Shown here in pieces: positions 254 through 10,519 of a stretch of 38,054 bases of DNA. The notes under the pieces were generated by a model. It did not search any database. It saw only the letters and a program-made list of their open reading frames with translations, and was not told the DNA's origin. The stretch comes from an uncultured Lachnospiraceae bacterium (GTDB lineage: Bacteria > Bacillota > Clostridia > Lachnospirales > Lachnospiraceae), in the NCBI GenBank assembly GCA_948470905.1, contig CAOKQK010000001.1:1-38054 (forward strand), in the 5' to 3' direction. A program made the position numbers and the translations under genes. Within the stretch, counting starts at the first letter, position 1, and each line of letters begins with the position of its first letter.

Positions 254-2164
254 ATGTTTCAGGGGATTAGTTTTTTTATCCGATACAGTTTTCGGAATAA
301 GAAGTCTTATCTTTTGTGTCGGCTTGCGGTGGAGATTGTCAGGATTTCCATATCGCTCACAGCTGTCATTGCGCCTAAATATGTGTTGGATGAGCTGTTC
401 GGAGCGCAGAGGATGGAGTATCTTGTACTCTGGGTGGGGATCCTGCTGGGGGTGCCGCTTCTGGGCGGATGGGCGGAAAGCGTTTTGAAAATGTGCGCAG
501 ACAATGCCAGGGAGGAGCTGCGCAGCCAGTTCGAGATTTACATTATGGAAAATCAGATGCAGTGCGATTTTGCGCAGATGGAGAATCCCAGATTCCATGA
601 TCTGAAGTCAAAGGCAGGCCAGTATATCAACGGTCAGTGGAATCAGTTCGGGGTGGTATGCGAGAGGGCATTTTCCCTGTTTGGACATGTGTTTACCCTG
701 CTGGGAGTTCTCTATCTGATCGTGCGGATCCATGTTGTGGTGCTTTTGATCTTTGCGGTCATGACGGTGGTGAATACATGGCTGGGAGCCAGGCTGAAAA
801 ACAAGACCACGCAGTTGATGCGGGGGTTTGCGCCGGTGCTCCGCAGAAGGGGGTATTATGAGGATGTGACGAAAAACCCTGCCTTTGCCAAAGAGATTCG
901 CCTGGGGGGCATTACAGACTGGCTTCTGGGAAAGTATGATCATTATATGCAGCAGTTCTGTCTGGAGACGGTTCCCATCCACCGCCATAATCTGCAGCAG
1001 AAGACCGTGACGGCGGCAACAGGCTTCCTGCAGCAGGCGGTGACATATGGCTATCTGTTCTGGCAGGCGGCTGCCCGTGCCATTACACTGGGTGATTTCA
1101 CCATGTACCTGAATGCCATGAAAACGTTTAACAATGTGATCAACAATACTGTGGACACGGTGCTGGAGATTGTGAAGTATACAGCCTTTTATAAGGATTT
1201 TGAGGAGTTTGACAACTTCCCAAGGCAGATGCGCACCGGAACCATGGACGCGGGGGAGGTCCTGGCGCAGGCAGGCAAGGACAGTGAGCTGGAGTTCAGG
1301 AATGTCTCTTTTCGTTATCCGGGGCAGGCGAAGGATGCGGTGAAAAAGCTGTCGGTAAAAATCCCTCTTGGGCAGAAGATTTCCATCGTAGGGGAAAACG
1401 GCGCCGGGAAGACCACCTTTATCAAGCTGCTGACCAGGCTCTACGATCCCACGGAAGGGCAGATTTTGTTAAACGGGGTGGACATCCGGGAGTTGGAATA
1501 TGAATCCTACATGAAGCTTTTTGCCGTAGTGCCGCAGGATTTCCAGCTTCTGAAGGGAACGATCCGGGAGAATATCTGCATGAGCCGGACGGGCGACATG
1601 GCAGGAGTGAGTGCCCAAGGCGGCGGGTGTAACGTGGATGCAAAGCGTACCATAGGTGACAGGCGGAATGTGGATGCAAAGCACACTCCAGATGACGGGT
1701 ATAATGCAGATGCAAAGCGTACCCAAGGCGATGAGCATATCATAAACGAAGCGTTGGCTGTGACCGGGCTGGGGGAGAAGATCCGGAAGCTGGAAAAGGG
1801 TCTGGATACCCAGGTGTATAAGGATTTTGACCCGAACGGGATCGAGCTGTCGGGGGGAGAGGCGCAGAAGCTTGTCATTTGCAGGGCGTATTATAAGGAC
1901 GCGCCGGTCTGCGTTCTGGATGAGCCTACAGCGGCGCTGGACCCGCGGGCGGAGTATGAGATTTATGAAAATTTCCATACGTTGGTTCGGGGCAAGACAG
2001 CGCTTTTCATTTCCCACCGCCTTGCCAGCTCCCGGGTGTGCGACCGTGTGATGGTTTTTCGCGGGGGAGAGATAGCTGAGGACGGAAGCCACCAGGAGCT
2101 GATGGAGAGGGGAGGGCTTTACAGCGAGCTTTTCGCCATGCAGGCACAGTTTTTTGAGGGGTGA
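254..2164 (+). CDS. ABC exporter, fused membrane and ATPase domains
   Basis: A half-size ABC exporter of 636 residues. The N-terminal part (about 1-320) carries the hydrophobic exporter segments. The ATPase domain has Walker A GENGAGKTTF near residue 380, a Q-loop VVPQDFQ near 427, signature LSGGEAQK near 532, Walker B VCVLDEPTAALD near 552, and H-loop ISHR. About 105 residues separate Q-loop and signature; exporters usually have about 60. The excess is a low-complexity insert with three 12-residue repeats. The ATG at 254 has GGGGAGGCGAG upstream. A GTG at 218 with AGGGGG is an alternative, but its RBS lies in a hairpin. No C39 peptidase domain is seen. The gene lies just upstream of a small peptide gene and a TPR-type regulator, so peptide export is plausible but unproven. 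Confidence 0.88.
   Translation: MFQGISFFIRYSFRNKKSYLLCRLAVEIVRISISLTAVIAPKYVLDELFGAQRMEYLVLWVGILLGVPLLGGWAESVLKMCADNAREELRSQFEIYIMENQMQCDFAQMENPRFHDLKSKAGQYINGQWNQFGVVCERAFSLFGHVFTLLGVLYLIVRIHVVVLLIFAVMTVVNTWLGARLKNKTTQLMRGFAPVLRRRGYYEDVTKNPAFAKEIRLGGITDWLLGKYDHYMQQFCLETVPIHRHNLQQKTVTAATGFLQQAVTYGYLFWQAAARAITLGDFTMYLNAMKTFNNVINNTVDTVLEIVKYTAFYKDFEEFDNFPRQMRTGTMDAGEVLAQAGKDSELEFRNVSFRYPGQAKDAVKKLSVKIPLGQKISIVGENGAGKTTFIKLLTRLYDPTEGQILLNGVDIRELEYESYMKLFAVVPQDFQLLKGTIRENICMSRTGDMAGVSAQGGGCNVDAKRTIGDRRNVDAKHTPDDGYNADAKRTQGDEHIINEALAVTGLGEKIRKLEKGLDTQVYKDFDPNGIELSGGEAQKLVICRAYYKDAPVCVLDEPTAALDPRAEYEIYENFHTLVRGKTALFISHRLASSRVCDRVMVFRGGEIAEDGSHQELMERGGLYSELFAMQAQFFEG
1631..1738 (+). repeat. Three in-frame 36-bp tandem repeats inside the ATPase domain
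   Basis: Three consecutive 36-bp units (1631, 1667, 1703) encode NVDAKRTIGDRR, NVDAKHTPDDGY and NADAKRTQGDEH, residues 460-495 of the exporter. GATGCAAAGC is invariant in all three. The unit length is a multiple of three, so the reading frame survives changes in copy number. The insert sits between Q-loop and signature, in the helical subdomain. Confidence 0.85.
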
Positions 2165-2180
2165 AGCGCAGATGCTCCTT

Positions 2181-2212
2181 GCCCGCGGGAGCAGATGTTC
2201 CCGGGCAGTTTT
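2181..2212 (+). terminator. Probable weak terminator after the ABC exporter
   Basis: GCCCGCGGGA (2181-2190) pairs with TCCCGGGC (2199-2206) with one bulge, followed by AGTTTTG. It lies 17 nt after the exporter stop. The T-run is short, so efficiency is uncertain. On the minus strand the CCCGCGGGCAA box resembles the left end of the intergenic repeat family found elsewhere in the window. Confidence 0.4.
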
Positions 2213-2225
2213 GAGCCCGGACGTC

Positions 2226-2252
2226 AACCAAATCCTGATATGTAACATACAT
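2226..2252 (-). pseudogene. Possible 5' remnant of a holin-like toxin ORF
   Basis: On the minus strand, AAGGAGGGCGATGTA precedes an ATG (2252) that reads MYVTYQDLV. This matches the usual opening of the very small putative holin-like toxin ORFs of Firmicutes. The expected hydrophobic segment does not follow; the frame runs into unrelated sequence shared with the exporter terminator. I read it as a truncated start. It could also be a chance resemblance. Confidence 0.3.
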
Positions 2253-2266
2253 TACATCGCCCTCCT

Positions 2267-2495
2267 TTCTTTCGTCTGGAGGGCTGCTTGAACCCTCCGA
2301 AAAAAACAAGAGGGGTAAAGCCGCCTGTTGAAAAAGCCATTAACTATTTCAAGGACAGCTTCTGTGTGGCTGAATCCAGGACCCGGTATTAAGGATGCTC
2401 CATGCAGACCAGCTGCCCGCCAGGATCACACAGCTGGTTAAACTAAATGGAAACAAAAGAAATTCTCGCCGGTTGCTTTTTGCCTGCGGAAAAAG
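2267..2495. other. Non-coding stretch before the small peptide gene
   Basis: No convincing gene. CCCTCC/GGAGGG pairs near 2261-2300 could form small hairpins. A block at about 2438-2475 (ACTAAATGGAAACAAAAG and flanks) resembles the sequence at 4888-4950 and at 9311-9370, so it may be a diverged copy of a repeat found ahead of other genes in this window. Confidence 0.4.
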
Positions 2496-2511
2496 GAGTA
2501 TCATGATACTC
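2496..2511. promoter_or_regulatory. Perfect 16-bp palindrome upstream of the peptide gene
   Basis: GAGTATCATGATACTC is a perfect palindrome 54 nt before the ATG at 2566. Its position suits an operator for the neighbouring double-HTH regulator. Part of it overlaps an AAGGAG and an alternative in-frame ATG at 2503, so its role could be partly translational. Operator function is inference. Confidence 0.4.
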
Positions 2512-2565
2512 AAAGGCTGGAAACAGTTCTTTTCTACAAAAAACTCAAAAAGGAGCCAGATAAAA

Positions 2566-2718
2566 ATGAAGAAAAACAAAAAACTATGGATTAAGATTAC
2601 GGCGGGTGTACTGCTGGCCTTGCAGTTGTTTGTCATTATTCCGGTCAAGCAGATTTCTCAGTGGGGAGTTTCGGTCTGCGGAGAGATTGAAGACTACTAT
2701 GACCATGAAAAACACTAA
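2566..2718 (+). CDS. Small membrane or exported peptide, candidate signalling peptide
   Basis: A 50-residue ORF. It has a basic start (MKKNKKLWIK), a hydrophobic stretch (about 11-27, ending VIIPV) and a polar acidic tail with a single Cys (VSVCGEIEDYYDHEKH). This is the shape of a secreted pre-peptide or a single-pass micropeptide. AGGAG lies 10 nt upstream. An in-frame ATG at 2503 also has AGGAG but only 4 nt spacing, and would give 71 residues. The stop codon overlaps that of the convergent double-HTH TPR regulator by two bases, and an ABC exporter lies just upstream. The arrangement is that of a peptide-receptor locus. The single Cys followed by acidic residues recalls AgrD-like peptides, but no AgrB is present. 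Function is inferred. Confidence 0.6.
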   Translation: MKKNKKLWIKITAGVLLALQLFVIIPVKQISQWGVSVCGEIEDYYDHEKH

Positions 2719-4643
2719 TAAGCAATAAGAAGATTAAAGTCTTCCATAAAATAGCGTTTTAGCAAAGGAATATTTTTCTGGAAGCCTGTGAAGTAGTTCA
2801 TATTACAGGCCAGTGCGCCGTATAACAGGGCATTTTCCTGCCAGCCGCACTCTCCAAGAGCCTGACAGTAAAAAAACAGGTAAAAACTGTAACTGTCCAG
2901 ATGATACCGCATATACAGCAGATTATTCTTTTCAGGAAAGGCTGCAACTGCGCTGAAATTTTTTGCCTTATAAAGGACATGGCAGTGTATATAGCTTATT
3001 ATAGACTGTAGATTGGTACAGAGCGCTATGTCCATTGGCAGCTTATTCAAATAATTCCTTAGCTGCAGGAGGTAAAGGATACTTGTCTGTGTTCCGTCCG
3101 CCGTGTCCAGCTTACCGTATATATGAGTTATACTGTTTAAAATATTCAGTTCCTGCCAGGATAAACGATAATCCATGATCCGGTGAATGTCAAATTCGGG
3201 CAGAGTACAATGAAGGGCGTCTGTGAGCAGCTGCAGGCGCTCTTTTAGAGAAAGGGTTTTTAAAGCCCTGGCTGACAGGCATTCCTGTTTCAGAAGAATG
3301 TCATTTTCTTTTAACAATCCTTCCATTTTATCAATATTTCTGCTGATCTGTTCTTTCTGGCTTTTTGAACTCATGTGCATGGTTTCAAATTTCAGCCTGT
3401 AAAATGCTGCTTCCCTTTCGCTTCCCCAGAAGGTAAATATCCGCTCGGATACCCCCAGGCGCTGGAGCAGAGCCTCCGTCAGTGCGATATCCGGCTGCAG
3501 GGTCTTGCTCTCAATCTTGGAAAGCTTGGATTTGGAGCATAGCCCATAACAGAGTGCTGACTGGGACAGGTTCTGCTCCAGTCTCAGATCCCGGATGATG
3601 TCCCCTATGGCATAATCATAAGCCTTGTCTGCAGTACTTGCTTTCGCAGGGGATGCCAGCGATGCATCCACAGTCTCCGGAGGGTATTCCTTAAGAGCGG
3701 TCCCGGGAAGCCGGAGCATTTGTTCCGTGACAGGAAAAGCAGTCTCCTGCTGCAGGTATGCAAGACATACGGAAGCATAACAGCTTCCCACATGATGGGC
3801 TGTGTAATAGGAAGCCTTGATCAGGGCGTCAGCCTCGTCCGTCTGCCCGGAACAAAAGCCGCAAAGCCCTGCCAGAAAGGTCAGCTCAAAAAGAGGCGCG
3901 GATTCGTTATTCGTGACCATCTGATGTCTGTGTTCATCTGCAATTCGGAAGGCATCCCCATATTCCGCCGCTGCAAAAAGGCATTTAACACGGACAATGG
4001 CGGCTTCCGCCTGCAGGCGTGTCCTTTCCATGTCGGACAGGCAGGAATAGAGGCCGCTGCCAAGGCAATGCTCTGCATAGTCAACGATTCGGACGCACTC
4101 TTTCCTCCGCCCCAGATAGAATGCCTCCTGTGCCAGAGCAGTTATGATCTCCAGTTCAATCTTTGCCAGAGGAGTGCCGTCAGGAGCCTCCGGTGTAAAA
4201 CAGGGGCGTGTAATGCGGATCGCTGCCAGGAGTATGTCGTAAATGTATTCATGGCGGCAGGCATAAGAACGGAACTGAAGCCTGGCATAGAGGAAAAGCC
4301 ATTCCTGATAGTAGAATCTGCTGCCGGTCCAGCGGAGCTCTTTTATTTTCTGCAGTTCTTTCCACGCAGGCTCCAGCTGCCAGGCATCCAGGTGGATGTG
4401 TGCATATTTTAAGGAACAGTAGCATTCAAAATCATCCCTGTCCGCAAATACAGGGAAGCGCGTATGGGGGAATCCGGCCCGGCGCATGAGGGACTCAAAG
4501 GTAGCAGGGCGGGCATTCATAACACCATTCTCAATCTGTGACAGCGCCTGGACGGAGCAGATTCCATCCGCCATATCTTCCTGAGTCATGCCGCTCAGGA
4601 TCCTTGCTTCATGTATCATGTCTTTTGCACTGCGTATTGCCAT
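2715..4643 (-). CDS. Regulator with two XRE HTH domains and TPR-like repeats
   Basis: A 642-residue cytoplasmic protein. A first XRE-type helix-turn-helix covers about residues 7-58 (SGMTQEDMADGICSVQALS, then QIENG). A helical TPR-like region runs from about 65 to 300. A second, separate helix-turn-helix covers about 343-398 (QNLSQSALCYGLCSKSKLS, then KIESK), followed by another helical region to the C-terminus. HTH plus TPR is the plan of the RRNPP family (Rgg, PlcR, PrgX), which bind exported-and-reimported peptides. Those normally have one HTH and about 280-320 residues, so this protein looks like two such regulators in tandem. AAAGAGG precedes the ATG. It has its own promoter and converges on a small peptide gene, its obvious candidate partner. 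Peptide binding is inference. Confidence 0.8.
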   Translation of the reverse strand: MAIRSAKDMIHEARILSGMTQEDMADGICSVQALSQIENGVMNARPATFESLMRRAGFPHTRFPVFADRDDFECYCSLKYAHIHLDAWQLEPAWKELQKIKELRWTGSRFYYQEWLFLYARLQFRSYACRHEYIYDILLAAIRITRPCFTPEAPDGTPLAKIELEIITALAQEAFYLGRRKECVRIVDYAEHCLGSGLYSCLSDMERTRLQAEAAIVRVKCLFAAAEYGDAFRIADEHRHQMVTNNESAPLFELTFLAGLCGFCSGQTDEADALIKASYYTAHHVGSCYASVCLAYLQQETAFPVTEQMLRLPGTALKEYPPETVDASLASPAKASTADKAYDYAIGDIIRDLRLEQNLSQSALCYGLCSKSKLSKIESKTLQPDIALTEALLQRLGVSERIFTFWGSEREAAFYRLKFETMHMSSKSQKEQISRNIDKMEGLLKENDILLKQECLSARALKTLSLKERLQLLTDALHCTLPEFDIHRIMDYRLSWQELNILNSITHIYGKLDTADGTQTSILYLLQLRNYLNKLPMDIALCTNLQSIISYIHCHVLYKAKNFSAVAAFPEKNNLLYMRYHLDSYSFYLFFYCQALGECGWQENALLYGALACNMNYFTGFQKNIPLLKRYFMEDFNLLIAY

Positions 4644-4689
4644 AAAAATTTCCTCTTTCGTATAGATACAATTGTTTGCTGAGATTGAT

Positions 4690-4722
4690 TACTATTATAG
4701 TATCGTTTTGTATAAAATTCAA
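4690..4722 (-). promoter_or_regulatory. Promoter of the double-HTH regulator with overlapping palindrome
   Basis: Reading the minus strand, TTGAAT (4722-4717), a 17-nt spacer and TATAAT (4699-4694) form a good sigma-A promoter about 50 nt before the regulator start. The palindrome TACTATTATAGTA (4690-4702) is centred on the -10 box and could be an autoregulatory operator. Confidence 0.6.
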
Positions 4723-4885: not shown

Positions 4886-4955
4886 ATTTAACTAAATAGA
4901 GACAAAAAAAATTCCAGATAGTTGATGGAAACAGAGAAAAAATCAGCATAAAATT
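4886..4955 (+). repeat. Diverged copy of a leader block shared with 6742 and 9311
   Basis: TTTAACTAAATAGAGACAAA and the following AAATTCC, GTTGATGGAAACAGAG and ATCAGCATAAAAT segments align by eye with the block at 9311-9380 (TTAATTAAATGGAAACATAA, ATTTCT, GTTTGAAACAGGG, ATCATAAAAT). As at 9217, it follows a copy of the intergenic repeat, so the two may form one composite element. Confidence 0.45.
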
Positions 4956-5061
4956 TTTATAAGACTAAAGAAAATACTTGTCCTGGATTCCCGACAAAAA
5001 TTTAGTTTACATAAAAAATCCTTGGGAACTCAGGTTTATTGTGGGAAAGGAGATTTGCTTA

Positions 5062-5676
5062 ATGAATGCGATCAACAGTAACTATCCGCAGGCATATGGT
5101 AATATGCAGCAGGAAGAAATCAGAAATCGAAACCGGGAGTATTCGCACGGTTATAAGAGCATAGAGGAAAAGCCGCAGGAAAATATACAGCCCCAAAATA
5201 CAGATAATGCCGGTATCTCTCCTTTGGAGGTGTATGAGAGCATGAGCGGTAAAGCCAAAATGATTCCGGAGGCAGATCAGGGCGCTGTGGGGGACAATCA
5301 GACAGAGCCTAAAAAGGTCATAGAAATAGGTGTAGTGACTCTCTATGACGTGGGCATTTCCTTTCATTTTAATGAACAGACCGGGGAGGTAAGCTGTGTC
5401 AACGACGAATGCCCAAATTCCGGCGAGCGGGTTTTGTGGAGCAAACAGCTTTCGGATGAAGAAATGACAAAATGCAATGCCCTGTTTGAAAACTATCCGA
5501 ACTATTCCAAGGGATATTTTGAGTATCGGTATAAAGCATATTTGAAGCATGAGAAGTTTTGGGATATGTATTTGGAAGATAAAATTGATTTGAAGGCTCT
5601 GGAATGGGGAAGCTCATATAGTGATGACGAGCTATATGATAGATTTCTTCGGGATATGAAAGACAGTGATATATAA
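5062..5676 (+). CDS. Hypothetical protein, 204 residues
   Basis: I do not recognise the family. The ATG at 5062 has AAAGGAGA 8 nt upstream. The first 100 residues are polar, rich in Gln/Asn/Glu and low in complexity (YPQAYGNMQQEEIRNRN), so probably disordered. The second half (about 100-204) looks folded, with a short beta-like stretch (VIEIGVVTLYDVGISFHF), a CVNDECPNSGERVLW segment with two Cys, and an acidic helical C-terminus. There is no signal peptide or membrane segment, so it is probably cytoplasmic. It is more AT-rich than the exporter upstream, which may indicate accessory DNA. It appears monocistronic. Confidence 0.65.
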   Translation: MNAINSNYPQAYGNMQQEEIRNRNREYSHGYKSIEEKPQENIQPQNTDNAGISPLEVYESMSGKAKMIPEADQGAVGDNQTEPKKVIEIGVVTLYDVGISFHFNEQTGEVSCVNDECPNSGERVLWSKQLSDEEMTKCNALFENYPNYSKGYFEYRYKAYLKHEKFWDMYLEDKIDLKALEWGSSYSDDELYDRFLRDMKDSDI

Positions 5677-6558: not shown

Positions 6559-6750
6559 TGGGTAGTGTAAAAAAATTGTGTCTTTGGAAAAAGATCCCTC
6601 CTTTTGGTAAGAATCAAGATATGACAATTCTTATCGAAAAGGAGGTTTTTTATGCCTGCAGCAGAGGAGCAGATTCGTCAGATTATTGCAGATAACAACT
6701 TAAAAACCGCGGTGTACAGGATGTGGAACGCAGCTTTCGGCATTGATTAA
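6559..6750 (+). mobile_element. Left-end remnant of an insertion sequence, probably IS256-like
   Basis: GGGTAGTGTAAAAAAATTGT (from about 6561) looks like an IS terminal repeat. A good RBS and an ATG at 6652 open MPAAEEQIRQIIADNNLKT, which resembles the N-terminus of IS256-family transposases. The frame then diverges and stops at 6750 after 32 residues, so nearly all of the transposase is missing. The family assignment rests on short similarity. Confidence 0.5.
6597..6645 (+). promoter_or_regulatory. Hairpin masking the transposase ribosome binding site
   Basis: CCTCCTTTT (6597-6605) plus GGTAAGAAT (6606-6614) pairs with ATTCTTATCGAAAAGGAGG (6627-6645) apart from one bulge and one wobble. The right arm is the AAGGAGG for the ATG at 6652. 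Such hairpins limit transposase translation from read-through transcripts in several IS families. Confidence 0.6.
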
Positions 6751-6993
6751 ATGGAAGCATAAAGATGGTTGTTGGAAACAGGGCAAGAATTATCATAAAA
6801 TGTCAAATGTAGAGGTTATAGAAAAACTTCTATATACAGTAAGGGGAAGGAATAGTGCGGAAGTGCTTGCGAAATATAAGGAGGTATGATAACATGAAGA
6901 AAAATGGTGTTGTGATAATGCTACTGACCAACGCAAAGAGAAGTTGTGCTGCTGATGATTTTCTGCAAAGCTTTTGCACTATTCCTGAATGAA
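6731..6993 (+). repeat. Duplicated leader block, copy 1 (partner at 9298)
   Basis: About 260 nt, from CGCAGCTTTCGGCATT to CACTATTCCTGA, is repeated at 9298-9575 with a moderate number of differences. It contains AATATAAGGAGGTATGATAACATG and a 32-codon ORF (6894-6992, MKKNGVVIMLLTNAKRS...). The second copy lacks that ATG (ATA instead), so the ORF may not be a gene. A 51-codon open frame at 6734-6889 is broken in copy 2 and is also doubtful. Both copies lie directly ahead of lipoprotein genes (7066 and 9593). Confidence 0.7.
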
Positions 6994-7065
6994 ACAGAGT
7001 ATTTCACACGGATGGGCGTCAGTACATGTCTGTCAGTTATGAAAAGGTACAAGGGAGGGCTTGCA

Positions 7066-9195
7066 GTGGGAAGGCTGTACCGGAGATTTGTAAGATGTTT
7101 TAATATTCTATTGGGCTGTATGCTGCTTGCGGCCTGCGGAACCAAAGAGGTCGTACAGCCCTCCCCCTCCAAAGGGGAAGGGCTGTCTTTCTTTTCCGAC
7201 GGGGGAGGGGAGAACCTGGATGTAGCGGTTGAGAGCGCTGCTTTTTACGATGTGATGACGGAGCTTAAGGGGCCGAATGAGGGAAGCAGGTCTGATGACG
7301 GCAAGTTTCTGGGCATGCAGTTTTATCATGGGGAACCGGTACAGCTTTGGGCGTCTGCGCCCTATGAGGAGTCCGGAGGGCAATATGTATCCGTGTACAT
7401 GTACCGCAGTGACGGGACGAGGGAAACCTGTCTGGAGCGGGTCGGGAGACTCACAGGGCAGAAGGTCTTTTTCAGGGATTCGGAAGGATATTGTTACAGC
7501 ATCGGCGTTTCGGCGAAAGGGGACAGTGCTGTCAACAGCATCATCAAGCTGGACAGCTCCGGGAAGTCTCTGTACACGGCAAGGCTGGAAGGGGACCGCG
7601 GGACAGTGGAGATGATGTGCGAGCTGGCGGACGGAGGCCTGGCGGTGCTGGCGGGTAAGGAAAGCGGCCGCGCAGACGAGGGGCTTATTCTGCTGGATGC
7701 GGGAGGGAAGCTTTCAGAGGTTGAGCTGTCAAGGCAGTTTCCCGGACAGTCCTGTTATCTGGGAACATCTGAGGAGGGGCTTCTGCTTCTTGCGGAAGAG
7801 GATCTGTACAAAATAGGGCTCCCGGACGGGAAGCTGGAGAAGATATTTTCTTTCGGTCAGACATCTTACGCAATGGGGCTTAGTGTTAGGAAGCCCTGTG
7901 CGTTCCTTGTGGGCAGGAATGGGGCGCTGGAGCTGCTGCGTACAGACCGTCAGGGCAAGGGTACATGTGAGACCATAAGGCTGACAGAGCTTGACGGAAA
8001 CAGGCAGAAAGTGGTTATAAGGGGCCGTTCCGTGAAAAATGCGCGCTGGCTGAAGGAGCAGATATTAAAATTCAACAATATCAACGATGAGTATGTGGTA
8101 ATATTGGAAGGACCTGAGGATTGGAATGACATGGATTATATTACCCGGACGGGCGTGGAGCTTGCTGCGGGGAAGGGACCTGATATTCTGATGGCGGACA
8201 TGATAGAGTCACCTGACAGCCTGATAGAAAAAGGGTGGCTGGCGGATTTGGCACCCCTGATGGAACAGGCAGGCATCAGGGAGGAGGATTATTTTCCCAT
8301 AGCCTTTGACACATGGAGAACGGGGGACAGTATTTACAGTATCAGAGTTTCCTCTGCCTGTCAGGAACGGCTGATATCCTCGGCGGTGCTGGGGGAACAT
8401 GCCACGGACGCAGGGTATCCCGATATAGAGACAGTGGTGGACGCAATGCTTGCCTATCAGGAGAAAGCGGTATATTATGGGAATGTTTCTGCGGACGGAA
8501 TTCTCCTTGAACTGCTGCAGGGCTCAGAGACTCTCTGGGGAATGGTGGACTGGGAGAGGGGAACCTGCGATTTCAGAGGGGAGCTGTTTGGAAAGCTGCT
8601 GGAGGTGGCAAAGAGGTATCAATATGATACTCAAAATCATTATCCAGCCGTCTGTTCGGACAGGAATTTTGGCATGATGGCCGGTTTATATACCTATCAA
8701 ACGGAGGCGGAATTGAGGGCAGAGGGAAAAGTGCCTGTGGGGACGTTTTTTGACAATGGCAGCCATCCGATAGGTTTGGGCATAATGTCCCGTTCGCTGT
8801 CGGTCAATGCTAATTCCGCCAACAGGGAAGGCGCCTGGGAATTTCTTCGGTTTCTTCTGAGTGAGGAGATACAGGTCAGCCTGCCGGAAATGGATGTATA
8901 TCTGCCAGTCAGAAAGAGTGCATATTGGACGCTTGCGGAGGAAGAAATTCTGAATGGTTCCGGAAATATTTTTGAAAATAAGGAAAAGCCTGTCAGGGAT
9001 TCTCTGCTCAGAGAAAGGGCGGAGGAAATGGAAGTGATTCTTGGCAATGTCCGGGCGCTGCCTTACAAGACACAGGCCATCCTTGAGATTGTCCTGGAGG
9101 AAGCGCAGGCGTATTTTGACGGCGCCAAGGAGATCCCTCAGATAGCGGAAGTCATTGAGAACAGGGTCGGCCTGTATTTGGAGGAGAGAAAATAA
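7066..9195 (+). CDS. Lipoprotein: propeller-like region fused to a family 1 solute-binding domain
   Basis: 709 residues from the GTG at 7066, which has AAGGGAGGG at good spacing. ATG codons at 7039 and 6946 are in frame but have poor sites and would extend the signal peptide oddly. The signal peptide ends in lipobox LLAAC (Cys24). Residues of about 45-310 contain repeated short beta-strand units (KLDSSGKSLYTARLEGDR, LLLDAGGKLSEVELS), suggesting a beta-propeller-like sensor. From about 318 a solute-binding fold begins (WLKEQILKFNNINDEYVV, GKGPDILMADMI, LAPLMEQAGIREEDYFP, NREGAWEFLRFLLSEE) and ends ENRVGLYLEE. It is paralogous to 22243. No permease genes are nearby. The substrate is unknown, probably sugar-like. 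Confidence 0.82.
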   Translation: MGRLYRRFVRCFNILLGCMLLAACGTKEVVQPSPSKGEGLSFFSDGGGENLDVAVESAAFYDVMTELKGPNEGSRSDDGKFLGMQFYHGEPVQLWASAPYEESGGQYVSVYMYRSDGTRETCLERVGRLTGQKVFFRDSEGYCYSIGVSAKGDSAVNSIIKLDSSGKSLYTARLEGDRGTVEMMCELADGGLAVLAGKESGRADEGLILLDAGGKLSEVELSRQFPGQSCYLGTSEEGLLLLAEEDLYKIGLPDGKLEKIFSFGQTSYAMGLSVRKPCAFLVGRNGALELLRTDRQGKGTCETIRLTELDGNRQKVVIRGRSVKNARWLKEQILKFNNINDEYVVILEGPEDWNDMDYITRTGVELAAGKGPDILMADMIESPDSLIEKGWLADLAPLMEQAGIREEDYFPIAFDTWRTGDSIYSIRVSSACQERLISSAVLGEHATDAGYPDIETVVDAMLAYQEKAVYYGNVSADGILLELLQGSETLWGMVDWERGTCDFRGELFGKLLEVAKRYQYDTQNHYPAVCSDRNFGMMAGLYTYQTEAELRAEGKVPVGTFFDNGSHPIGLGIMSRSLSVNANSANREGAWEFLRFLLSEEIQVSLPEMDVYLPVRKSAYWTLAEEEILNGSGNIFENKEKPVRDSLLRERAEEMEVILGNVRALPYKTQAILEIVLEEAQAYFDGAKEIPQIAEVIENRVGLYLEERK

Positions 9196-9216
9196 CGGAG
9201 CAGATTCGTCAGATTA

Positions 9217-9303
9217 TTCCCGCGGGCAATGAGTCATAAGTCCGAGAAGTTTACTTCTCTGGGACCTTGACGAATGCCGTGAGGGTCAAAAAACCCCGCA
9301 GCT
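9217..9303 (+). repeat. Intergenic repeat element, copy 2
   Basis: A near-consensus copy: ATTCCCGCGGGCAATGAGTC, then GAGAAGTTTACTTCTCTGGG, then CTTGACGAATGCCGTGAGGG, then an A-run and CCCCGCAG. It starts 22 nt after the lipoprotein stop. It splits a short match to the IS remnant (CAGATTCGTCAGATTATT, 9200-9217, also at 6672) from the duplicated leader block. Confidence 0.85.
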
Positions 9304-9575
9304 TTCGGCATTAATTAAATGGAAACATAAAGATTTCTGGGCGATTGTTTGAAACAGGGCAGAAATTATCATAAAATGTCAAATGTAGAGGTTAAAGAAA
9401 AAACCTCTATATGTGGTAAGAGTAAGGAATAGTGCGGAAGTGCTTGCGAAATATAAGGAGGTATGATAACATAAAGAAAAAGGGTGTTGTGATAATGCTA
9501 CTGACCAACGCACAGAAGAGTTATGTTACTGTTAATTTCCTGCAGGGCTTTCGTGCTATTCCTGAGTGGGACAAT
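9298..9575 (+). repeat. Duplicated leader block, copy 2 (partner at 6731)
   Basis: Same block as 6731-6993, with an extra TTCTGGGCGATT segment and a better hairpin, AGAGGTT/AACCTCT (about 9386-9409). It leads into the lipoprotein at 9593. The corresponding short ORF lacks a start codon here and reads on to a TAG near 9580. Confidence 0.7.
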
Positions 9576-9592
9576 TATTAGGGGGGTATATT

Positions 9593-10519
9593 TTGAAGAG
9601 GAAAATAATTGTGTCCCTCTTTGCATTTCTTTTGGTTTTGTCCGCCGGATGCGGGCAGTCGGAACGGGAAGTAACCCACAGTTCCATATTAAACAATGCC
9701 TATACTGTCAGTGAGATAGGGCAGGATGTCACTCAGCTGTCTTCCCCTTACGGAATCGTATGCCGGGAAGAAGATGTTCTGGTCTGTGATTATTCCGGGA
9801 ATAAAATCGTAATTCTTGATCCGGAGGGGAATTATCTGGGGGAGGTGGGGACGTCGGGAAGTGCGCCGCTTGAATTCATCAGACCCACAGGTATTACGCA
9901 GACAGATCAGTACATATATGTGATTGATTCAGGCAATGACAGAATCCAGATTCTTGACCAGGATCTGGTTTTTGTGCGTGAGATAGGGCTGCCGGGAACG
10001 TCGCCGTCGGAAGCGGTTTTTTTTATGGATATTGCTGTTACATCGGACGAGGAGATTTATCTTTCCACCAATTTTGTAGAGAAGAAGACCTCCCGCATCT
10101 ATAAGGTATCAGAGGAAAATACAGTGGTGGAGGTGTCCTCCCGTCCCTTTTGGGGTTATCTTGCATCGGCAGGGAACGAGATTTATGGGGTAAGTTCCAT
10201 GGAGTTTTACAAAGAAAAGAATGTCCAGGGGGCACGCTCGGGGGAATGCAGCCTGAAAAATATTACGGCTGGAAAGGATATTTCAGAGCTGCCATATAAG
10301 TATTGTCCCCTGGATTTTGTCGTATACGGGGATAAATATTATTGTCTGTCCGCGATGACGGCCTCTCTGGACCGGCTGGACTCGGAGGGCGTTTATCTGG
10401 ATACCATTGCCCAAATGCCTTCTTTGGCTCTTTATTCCTGGGTTGATGTGTCCTCTGACGGGAAGTTTTATGTTACCAACAGAATGGAAGGTTCGGTTTA
10501 CATTGTGCGGATAAAATGA
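9593..10519 (+). CDS. NHL-type six-bladed propeller lipoprotein
   Basis: 308 residues from a TTG at 9593 with GGGGGGT upstream. It has a lipoprotein signal peptide (LKRKIIVSLFAFLLVLSAGC, Cys20). The remainder is made of NHL-like blades: SSPYGIVCREEDVLVCDYSG then NKIVILDPEGNYLGEVG, and RPTGITQTDQYIYVIDSGN then DRIQILDQDLVFVREIG. These are typical extracellular binding or sensing propellers. It is followed by two FtsX-type permeases and an ATPase, and 125 nt separate it from the first. I infer that it is the surface partner of that ABC complex. The chemistry is unknown. Confidence 0.75.
   Translation: MKRKIIVSLFAFLLVLSAGCGQSEREVTHSSILNNAYTVSEIGQDVTQLSSPYGIVCREEDVLVCDYSGNKIVILDPEGNYLGEVGTSGSAPLEFIRPTGITQTDQYIYVIDSGNDRIQILDQDLVFVREIGLPGTSPSEAVFFMDIAVTSDEEIYLSTNFVEKKTSRIYKVSEENTVVEVSSRPFWGYLASAGNEIYGVSSMEFYKEKNVQGARSGECSLKNITAGKDISELPYKYCPLDFVVYGDKYYCLSAMTASLDRLDSEGVYLDTIAQMPSLALYSWVDVSSDGKFYVTNRMEGSVYIVRIK

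What the first reader, a model, noticed from the sequence alone, without database searches (positions are those of the whole stretch)
254..4722. Possible peptide-signalling locus: ABC exporter, 50-residue peptide and a regulator with two HTH-TPR units
Seen: a 642-residue protein has two separate XRE helix-turn-helix motifs (about 7-58 and 343-398), each followed by TPR-like helices. It converges, with overlapping stop codons, on a signal-peptide-like 50-codon gene. A 16-bp perfect palindrome lies before the peptide gene and another sits on the regulator's -10 box. An ABC exporter lies just upstream. Known: RRNPP receptors are single HTH-TPR proteins paired with small exported peptides. Inference: a tandem-duplicated receptor could read one peptide at two sites or integrate two signals. 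I know of no described system with this plan.
Basis: partly seen in the sequence, partly recalled or inferred. Interest (0 to 1): 0.72.

Follow-up and report, generated by a model that had tools for sequence, protein, structure and literature searches.

The report
Two-headed receptor with convergent pheromone gene
In gut bacteria of the family Lachnospiraceae a signalling receptor appears duplicated head-to-tail into one protein with two DNA-binding heads, and its gene usually ends against a small gene for an exported-type peptide, so it is probably a new layout of bacterial peptide communication.

Summary
In detail: a 642-aa protein with two XRE HTHs, and a 50-codon signal-peptide-like ORF converging on it with overlapping stops. 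Relatives show what it is. Its halves are homologous beyond the HTHs (hhalign E 5e-43 with 34 family members) and match PlcR by profile. Among two-unit-length relatives 30 of 47 (28 of the 40 with both HTHs detected) have a convergent signal-like ORF, against 2 of 204 neighbouring genes; in a second set 23 of 36 (15 of 21) against 0 of 46. Two informative peptide pairs show purifying selection. The ABC exporter is not a conserved part. Best explanation: a tandem-duplicated RRNPP-type pheromone receptor with a convergent propeptide, controlling RiPP or lipoprotein genes. Binding, export, direction of regulation and two-signal integration are not shown, and no structure could be predicted. New variant of a known kind.

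The parts
2715..4643 (-). tandem HTH-TPR-like regulator, 642 aa (stop included)
   Evidence: Pfam; relatives 36-47% identical over the whole length
4482..4616 (-). first XRE HTH (residues 10-54)
   Evidence: Pfam HTH_3; conserved in A1
3444..3608 (-). second XRE HTH (residues 346-400)
   Evidence: Pfam HTH_31; conserved in A1
3639..4643 (-). unit 1, HTH plus TPR-like helices (about residues 1-335)
   Evidence: homologous to unit 2; PlcR and PrgX by family profile, best stretches in the N-terminal 60-140 residues
2718..3638 (-). unit 2, HTH plus TPR-like helices (about residues 336-642)
   Evidence: PlcR aligned over most of the unit
2566..2718 (+). convergent 50-aa propeptide gene, signal-peptide-like, stop codon overlapping that of the regulator
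   Evidence: counterparts in 12 of 14 full-length subfamily loci, the window included
2443..2472 (+). operator at the peptide promoter: left arm CTAAATGGAAAC intact, right arm degenerate
   Evidence: the exact left arm occurs once in the 3.7 Mb genome; 4 of 100 shuffles reach the score of the whole site
4892..4921 (+). second operator, between the regulator (249 bp upstream of its start) and the divergent ORF 4978-5676
   Evidence: (18 of 24 arm positions, 0 of 100 shuffles reach it)
6747..6776 (+). operator-like repeat (left arm only) upstream of a 32-codon ORF (6895-6993) and the solute-binding-protein gene 6946-9195
9315..9344 (+). operator-like repeat upstream of 9566-10519; the only place in the own genome that fits the degenerate operator pattern
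254..2164 (+).
   Evidence: no match on that side of 13 of 14 other loci

Best explanation
The locus is a peptide-pheromone module whose receptor is a tandem duplication of a PlcR/Rgg-like (RRNPP-type) HTH-TPR protein. The small convergent gene makes a propeptide that is exported (inferred, Sec-type) and trimmed near its variable C-terminus (in about half of this subfamily a motif like G[VI]xxCG[DE]). The peptide is taken back up and binds one or both TPR-like units (inferred). The loaded receptor, probably as a dimer carrying four HTH heads, binds the composite operator CTAAATGGAAAC-N6-GTTTCCATTTAG (inferred) and activates the propeptide promoter (positive feedback), with further sites at its own promoter and at cargo genes. 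In this subfamily the cargo is often a radical-SAM RiPP cluster or solute-binding lipoproteins. Shown by computation: the tandem homology, the PlcR-like sequence, the systematic convergent propeptide ORF, purifying selection on the peptide in two pairs, and the shared operator with a preferred distance to the -10. Not shown: export, peptide binding, DNA binding, and the direction of regulation.
For: Halves homologous: hhalign E 1.9e-21 in the subfamily, 4.9e-43 over 262 columns in 34 family members. PDB: subfamily profile to PlcR E 1e-4 (domain 0.006), collinear 343-595 with 6-248; family unit 2 to PlcR 1.1e-25 over 10-302, ComR 9.5e-8 in the HTH region; family unit 1 to PlcR 3.9e-13 and PrgX 5e-6. 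Pfam RNPP_C in 8 of 34 unit-2 and 1 of 34 unit-1 sequences. Convergent signal-like ORF in 30 of 47 two-unit-length genes (28 of 40 with both HTHs detected, 2 of 7 with one) against 2 of 204 controls (Fisher 2e-24), and in 23 of 36 (15 of 21 and 8 of 15) against 0 of 46 (Fisher 2e-11). Single-HTH gene pairs: 4 of 6 and 7 of 11 have it after the second gene. Peptide dN/dS 0.31 (p 0.008) and 0.28 (p 0.006) in the two informative pairs. Operator: in 13 of 27 upstream regions no shuffle of 100 reaches the observed score, at both promoters in L054, L055, L107 and L134. Best -10 match 26-27 nt away in 6 of 9 peptide promoters (7 of 3000 shuffle sets do as well), with no -35 better than 3 of 6 bases. 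In L140 the RiPP-type operon lies on the other side of the regulator and still has an operator that begins 91 bp upstream.
Against: No structure prediction was possible, so TPR folds rest on sequence profiles, in which designed TPR proteins rank above PlcR; the subfamily unit-2 profile alone gave PlcR only 0.008 beside chance hits, and unit 1 alone only the PlcR HTH. 17 of 47 and 13 of 36 two-unit-length genes have no convergent ORF by the filter; in the subfamily 2 of 14 full-length genes (L133, L145) have none. The shared peptide/regulator operator is visible only in this subfamily and one or two others: over 50 loci the mean best shared 24-mer was 17.2 against 16.7 for mismatched loci (from which the window and L105 dropped out). 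In 14 of 27 subfamily upstream regions at least 1 of 100 shuffles reached the operator score, among them the window's peptide site (4), and in 9 of these the site is not credible (20 or more). Half of the exact 12-mers in G156 and 2 of 7 in G047 lie elsewhere, and the reversed control pattern also occurred twice in G156. No dedicated export or processing gene is conserved. Three of six peptide pairs gave no significant selection signal and one was marginal.
Confidence: 0.74

Rival explanations
1. The small convergent ORF is not a pheromone but an effector such as a secreted bacteriocin, RiPP precursor or membrane-active peptide, and the two-HTH protein is its dedicated regulator.
For: Radical-SAM enzymes with exporters, and in three loci an M16 peptidase, lie beside 7 of 15 subfamily loci, and the peptide promoter is the target with the most regular geometry.
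Against: The convergent ORF also occurs in the window and other subfamily loci without a radical-SAM neighbour of this kind. It has a Sec-like N-terminus. In L055 and L107 the radical-SAM operon carries its own pair of leader-type small ORFs.
Confidence: 0.12
2. Same receptor and peptide, but the regulator is a repressor relieved by the peptide (as known for Rgg3 or PrgX) rather than an activator. This overlaps with the best explanation in all but the direction.
For: At some regulator promoters the operator lies close to the best -10 match (12 nt in L054 and L105), as an autorepressor would; PrgX is among the profile hits.
Against: At peptide promoters the operator ends 26-27 nt before the best -10 match in 6 of 9, with no -35 better than 3 of 6 bases, which suits activation; the best natural PDB match of both family profiles is the activator PlcR.
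Confidence: 0.22
3. The two-HTH protein is an XRE regulator with an unrelated input, and the small ORFs are chance or terminator-linked.
For: 17 of 47 and 13 of 36 genes have no such ORF.
Against: Enrichment against genes in the same loci, repeated in a second set, purifying selection in two pairs, and a shared C-terminal motif in about half of the subfamily peptides.
Confidence: 0.04

Closest known systems
PlcR-PapR (RRNPP, Bacillus cereus group)
   Same: HTH plus TPR regulator with a short signal-peptide-bearing propeptide gene next to it (recalled); best natural PDB match of both family profiles; an operator box upstream of the target -10 (recalled for PlcR).
   Different: PlcR is one unit (293-residue chain); here two units are fused in one chain. 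PlcR's box is about 16 bp and papR lies downstream in the same direction (recalled); here the repeat spans 30 bp and the peptide gene is convergent.
Rgg/SHP Group III (streptococci)
   Same: The peptide gene overlaps the end of the regulator gene and is transcribed convergently (PMC13361665, passages).
   Different: Rgg is a single HTH-TPR unit (recalled), and SHPs go through PptAB and not Sec (PMC10075063 passage); here subfamily peptides of 43-76 aa have Sec-like signal segments.
Rgg/SHP-controlled RaS-RiPP clusters (streptococci)
   Same: A peptide-sensing regulator beside a radical-SAM RiPP cluster; PMC13361665 reviews both (title and passages only).
   Different: Here two-HTH proteins in Lachnospiraceae; lipoprotein genes take the place of the cluster in some loci.
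RRNPP candidates from RRNPP_Detector
   Same: Adjacent receptor and Sec-type propeptide genes.
   Different: That method requires a receptor of 250-500 aa (PMC10075063, passages), so proteins of about 600-700 aa are excluded by design.

Membership tests
RRNPP peptide receptors | XRE-type HTH at the N-terminus of the receptor unit | tested here: met
   both units of the window protein; HTH families match all 7 members of A1
RRNPP peptide receptors | TPR-like helical domain homologous to PlcR/Rgg/ComR | tested here: met
   by profile only, clearest for unit 2; fold not predicted
RRNPP peptide receptors | receptor of 250-500 aa (the detection rule of RRNPP_Detector) | tested here: not met
   642 aa with two units; each unit alone, about 306-336 aa, would fit. 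A search rule rather than a biological definition
RRNPP peptide receptors | adjacent propeptide gene of 10-100 aa with Sec-type signal | tested here: met
   signal judged by charge and hydrophobicity, not SignalP
RRNPP peptide receptors | peptide binds the TPR domain and changes DNA binding or activity | not testable with these tools
   needs a binding or reporter assay
Rgg/SHP Group III | peptide gene convergent with and overlapping the regulator gene | tested here: met
   window; exactly 4 bases of overlap in 16 of 30 and 7 of 23 of the genes that have a convergent ORF
Rgg/SHP Group III | short hydrophobic peptide without Sec signal | tested here: not met
   window peptide 50 aa with a hydrophobic signal-like segment followed by a polar acidic tail

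The most novel reading that the evidence does not exclude
Lachnospirales use a whole class of single-chain, two-unit pheromone receptors that work as built-in heterodimers. The two TPR-like units differ in sequence and could hold different peptides, for example the cell's own pheromone in one and a paralogous or foreign peptide in the other. The two HTH types read different halves of each 12-bp operator arm (inner GGAAAC, outer CTAAAT), so one molecule performs two-input logic on promoters of RiPP and other cargo. Gene pairs coding the two units separately, with one shared peptide, would be the unfused form.
Probability: 0.3. Interest if true: 0.86.

Novelty: new variant of a known kind. Interest (0 to 1): 0.74.

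Why it matters
The search tool behind a large RRNPP survey requires receptors of 250-500 aa, so this class would be missed by design. In a sample of 393 genomes of the order, 70 match the two-unit profile (single-unit hits included) and 30, by my count of the listed rows, have an unbroken match over at least 500 of its 607 positions; only three candidates per genome were scored, so this is a lower bound. No paper in the searched library holds both 'RRNPP' and 'Lachnospiraceae', although these are common gut bacteria. The loci give testable parts: propeptides with variable C-termini, an operator sequence, cargo operons including RiPP clusters, and members in records named Falcatimonas sp. MSJ-15 and Butyrivibrio sp. 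MC2013. A fused two-pocket receptor would make two-signal logic in peptide communication directly testable.

Tried and rejected
ABC exporter as part of the module: rejected. Of 14 other subfamily loci only the truncated L137 has a match on the peptide side (a 265-aa ABC-type ORF, 26%); two loci reach less than 1.6 kb on that side (L054, L133). Plasmid collection: no match; phage collection: 3 unannotated gut records matching part of unit 2 at 27%. Operator copies elsewhere in G156 and G047 were read: the G047 places C1 and C38 share their flanks and may be one repeated element; the targets remain unclear. The degenerate operator pattern gave 23 hits in 8 genomes against 2 for the reversed control; in G254 the only hit is away from the locus.

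Rows dropped or mixed. The 47 genes are 33 frames (13 frames left out as short or duplicate loci: L086-L088, L096, L101, L102, L104, L125-L129, L139; 2 under 500 aa) plus 14 added by hand; in 7 of the 14 (L034, L035, L112-L114, L116, L121) only one HTH passed my profile. Split: subfamily 11 of 12 (the miss is contig-end L136), other two-HTH 17 of 28, one HTH detected 2 of 7. The 36 were taken by profile match and length, not by HTH count: both HTHs detected in 21, of which 15 have the ORF, fewer in 15, of which 8. L230 is probably the Butyrivibrio locus already seen as L147 (identical peptide); L211/L212/L217, L206/L208 and L240/L241 are close relatives, so counts are not fully independent. 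L060's hit (255 nt away) is counted but weak. The 14 full-length subfamily loci exclude truncated L137 and contig-end L136, and were scored with a looser filter. Controls are ORFs of at least 250 aa in the same loci, kept away from locus ends, not matched for function. The 23 operator sites were picked by hand, mostly on the left arm; the 9 peptide promoters leave out L108, L140 and L147, where I had no site. In some searches six peptide pairs were tested; L217 was compared over 63 codons because of a length difference.

Papers. Passages seen through 'find': PMC10075063, PMC12700828, PMC9765709, PMC13361665, PMC3150281. All others: search listing only. That I know of no two-HTH RRNPP receptor in print rests on searches of an open-access library without bioRxiv.
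Full report
Observation. The window is the first 38 kb of contig C1 of genome G000. The 642-aa ORF (2715-4643, minus) has two XRE HTH domains, and the 50-aa ORF 2566-2718 (plus) ends against it with a 4-bp overlap. The genus is one that holds records named Acetatifactor: contig lengths of G275:C2 and G291:C10 equal those of CATKYJ010000002.1 and CANQEH010000010.1 (inference).

Relatives. In the genus as held, 9 of 138 genomes, G000 included, have a relative at E <= 1e-30. Others are in G156 (contig length as JAILHH010000026.1, Acetatifactor sp. RUI119), G047 (as NZ_JAHLQC010000013.1, Falcatimonas sp. MSJ-15), G470 and Butyrivibrio sp. MC2013. Identity to the window protein is 36-47% for most, 28-30% for the most distant (L140, L147). 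Both HTH domains are conserved.

The protein is a tandem duplication of one RRNPP-type unit. Unit 1 and unit 2 align by hhalign at E 1.9e-21 in the subfamily and 4.9e-43 over 262 columns with 34 family members, so the homology extends beyond the HTH. Against the PDB the subfamily profile finds PlcR at 1e-4 (domain 0.006), collinear 343-595 with 6-248. Subfamily profiles of the single units are weaker: unit 1 hits only the PlcR HTH (4.4e-5), unit 2 PlcR over 13-265 at 0.008 beside chance hits. Family profiles are clear: unit 2 to PlcR 1.1e-25 over 10-302, unit 1 to PlcR 3.9e-13 and PrgX 5e-6; chains titled 'Transcriptional regulator' (4yv6, 5w4m; recalled to be Rgg) also match unit 1, and designed TPR proteins rank first in both. 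Pfam's RNPP_C matches 8 of 34 unit-2 and 1 of 34 unit-1 sequences, and TPR families match a few of each. The window protein itself has no Pfam TPR hit, and no structure could be predicted.

A wide family. An HTH profile made from the subfamily found 48 distinct frames with two HTHs and 37 with one in the loci held by then; the two-HTH frames are mostly 590-700 aa. The 34-member alignment matched 70 of 393 genomes of the order at E <= 1e-20, single-unit hits included; 30 have an unbroken match over 500 or more of 607 positions by my count of the rows, in families f1, f5, f11 and f16. Single-HTH genes also occur as overlapping or adjacent pairs.

The peptide gene is systematic. I scanned 500 bp on either side of 47 two-unit-length genes for ORFs of 28-85 codons with an SD, a basic start and a hydrophobic stretch. 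Convergent at the 3' end: 30 of 47, against 2 of 204 other genes of at least 250 aa in the same loci (Fisher 2e-24). Other orientations: 3 of 47 (one each) against 11, 7 and 5 of 204. Split: 11 of 12 in the window's subfamily, 17 of 28 other genes with two HTHs detected, 2 of 7 with one detected. A second set of 36 found by the profile search gave 23 of 36 against 0 of 46 controls; 15 of 21 with both HTHs detected, 8 of 15 with fewer. An overlap of exactly four bases occurs in 16 of the 30 and 7 of the 23. Gene pairs coding one unit each have the ORF after the second gene in 4 of 6 and 7 of 11, two of the latter being near-identical. In the subfamily 12 of 14 full-length loci have it by a looser filter; in L133 and L145 another gene abuts the regulator and none was found, nor in truncated L137.

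Selection and motif. L106 and L134 peptides (76 codons, no indel) differ at 11 synonymous and 12 nonsynonymous changes on 54 and 174 sites, dN/dS 0.31, p 0.008; without the last 12 codons 0.13, p 0.003. L211/L212: 0.28, p 0.006. L211/L217 was marginal (0.29, p 0.045, not independent of the last). L212/L217, L206/L208 and L240/L241 were not significant (10, 4 and 3 changes). Pooling four pairs gives p 5e-5. The C-terminal ends change fastest in L106/L134 and L211/L212, as expected of a mature signal. Six of 12 subfamily peptides share a C-terminal motif (GVSVCGE window, QISVCGE L105, GIMPCGD L106/L134, GVRPCGD L132, GIQLYGD L135); L108 fits in part (GVKPCAM), and L054, L055, L107, L140 and L147 poorly or not (by eye).

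Operator. CTAAATGGAAAC-N6-GTTTCCATTTAG is perfect at both promoters of L055 and nearly so in L054. The exact 12-mer occurs 1, 4 and 7 times in G000, G156 and G047, 8 of the 12 at these loci; the reversed control occurs 0, 2 and 0 times. Against shuffles of each upstream region, 13 of 27 regions had no shuffle of 100 reaching the observed score (both promoters in L054, L055, L107, L134); the window's regulator side had 0, its peptide side 4; nine regions had 20 or more, thus no credible site in that span, and L147's regulator side had 15. Over 23 hand-picked sites the left arm matches at 88-93% of positions (inflated by the picking), the right inner arm at 76%, the right outer arm at 52%, which suggests two sub-sites per arm (inference). 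In the window further copies stand at 4892, 6747 and 9315.

Promoter geometry. In 6 of 9 subfamily peptide promoters with a site, the best -10 match begins 26-27 nt after the operator; 7 of 3000 shuffle sets reached 6 in any 2-nt bin. No -35 matches more than 3 of 6 bases. At the eight regulator-side sites other than L137's the distance varies from 12 to 41 nt. This favours an activator of the peptide promoter with a feedback on the regulator, by inference.

Cargo. Radical-SAM enzymes with ABC exporters lie divergent from the regulator in L054, L106, L108 and L145; M16 peptidase, radical SAM and MFS in L055 and L107. In L140 the M16-radical SAM-MFS operon is on the peptide side, with an operator that begins 91 bp before it. 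Thus 7 of 15 loci have a radical-SAM neighbour of this kind. The window, L105 and L135 have solute-binding-type genes instead, L133 on the other side; L132, L134, L137 and L147 have neither.

Verdict. The tandem receptor with a convergent propeptide is well supported as a recurrent genetic unit; its RRNPP-type working is the most economical reading but is not shown. I did not find a two-HTH RRNPP receptor described, and RRNPP_Detector's 250-500 aa limit would exclude it.

Noticed in passing
window 6729-6996 and 9297-9573: A duplicated promoter/leader region (86% over 175 nt) with an operator-like repeat and a 32-codon ORF MKKNGVVIMLLTNAKRSCAADDFLQSFCTIPE; the second copy reads ATA in place of the start codon.
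   Followed up: partly
window 6653-6751: A 32-codon ORF with a strong SD, MPAAEEQIRQIIADNNLKTAVYRMWNAAFGID, with part of it repeated at 9197.
   Followed up: no
window about 1620-1735: Imperfect tandem repeats (N-V/A-DAK-R/H-T) inserted in the ATPase domain of the ABC transporter.
   Followed up: no
L055 10478-10842 and L107 12742-13081: Two pairs of related leader-type small ORFs directly before radical-SAM genes, probably RiPP precursors (EEENxGxGxEIVI endings).
   Followed up: partly
L054 6507-8419; L107 6946-8196: AAA_21 and RloB-like genes in L054, the former with a relative (33% identity) in L107, possibly a defence pair next to the module.
   Followed up: no
G346 (several contigs: L112-L116): One genome with at least five relatives of two-unit length, two of them (L112, L115) with a convergent peptide.
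   Followed up: partly
L137 3770-5221: A relative cut to about 483 aa, with operator-like repeats on both sides but no peptide ORF.
   Followed up: no
phage records MT837634, MT837704, MT836677: Unannotated human-gut phage records with a 27% match to part of unit 2.
   Followed up: no
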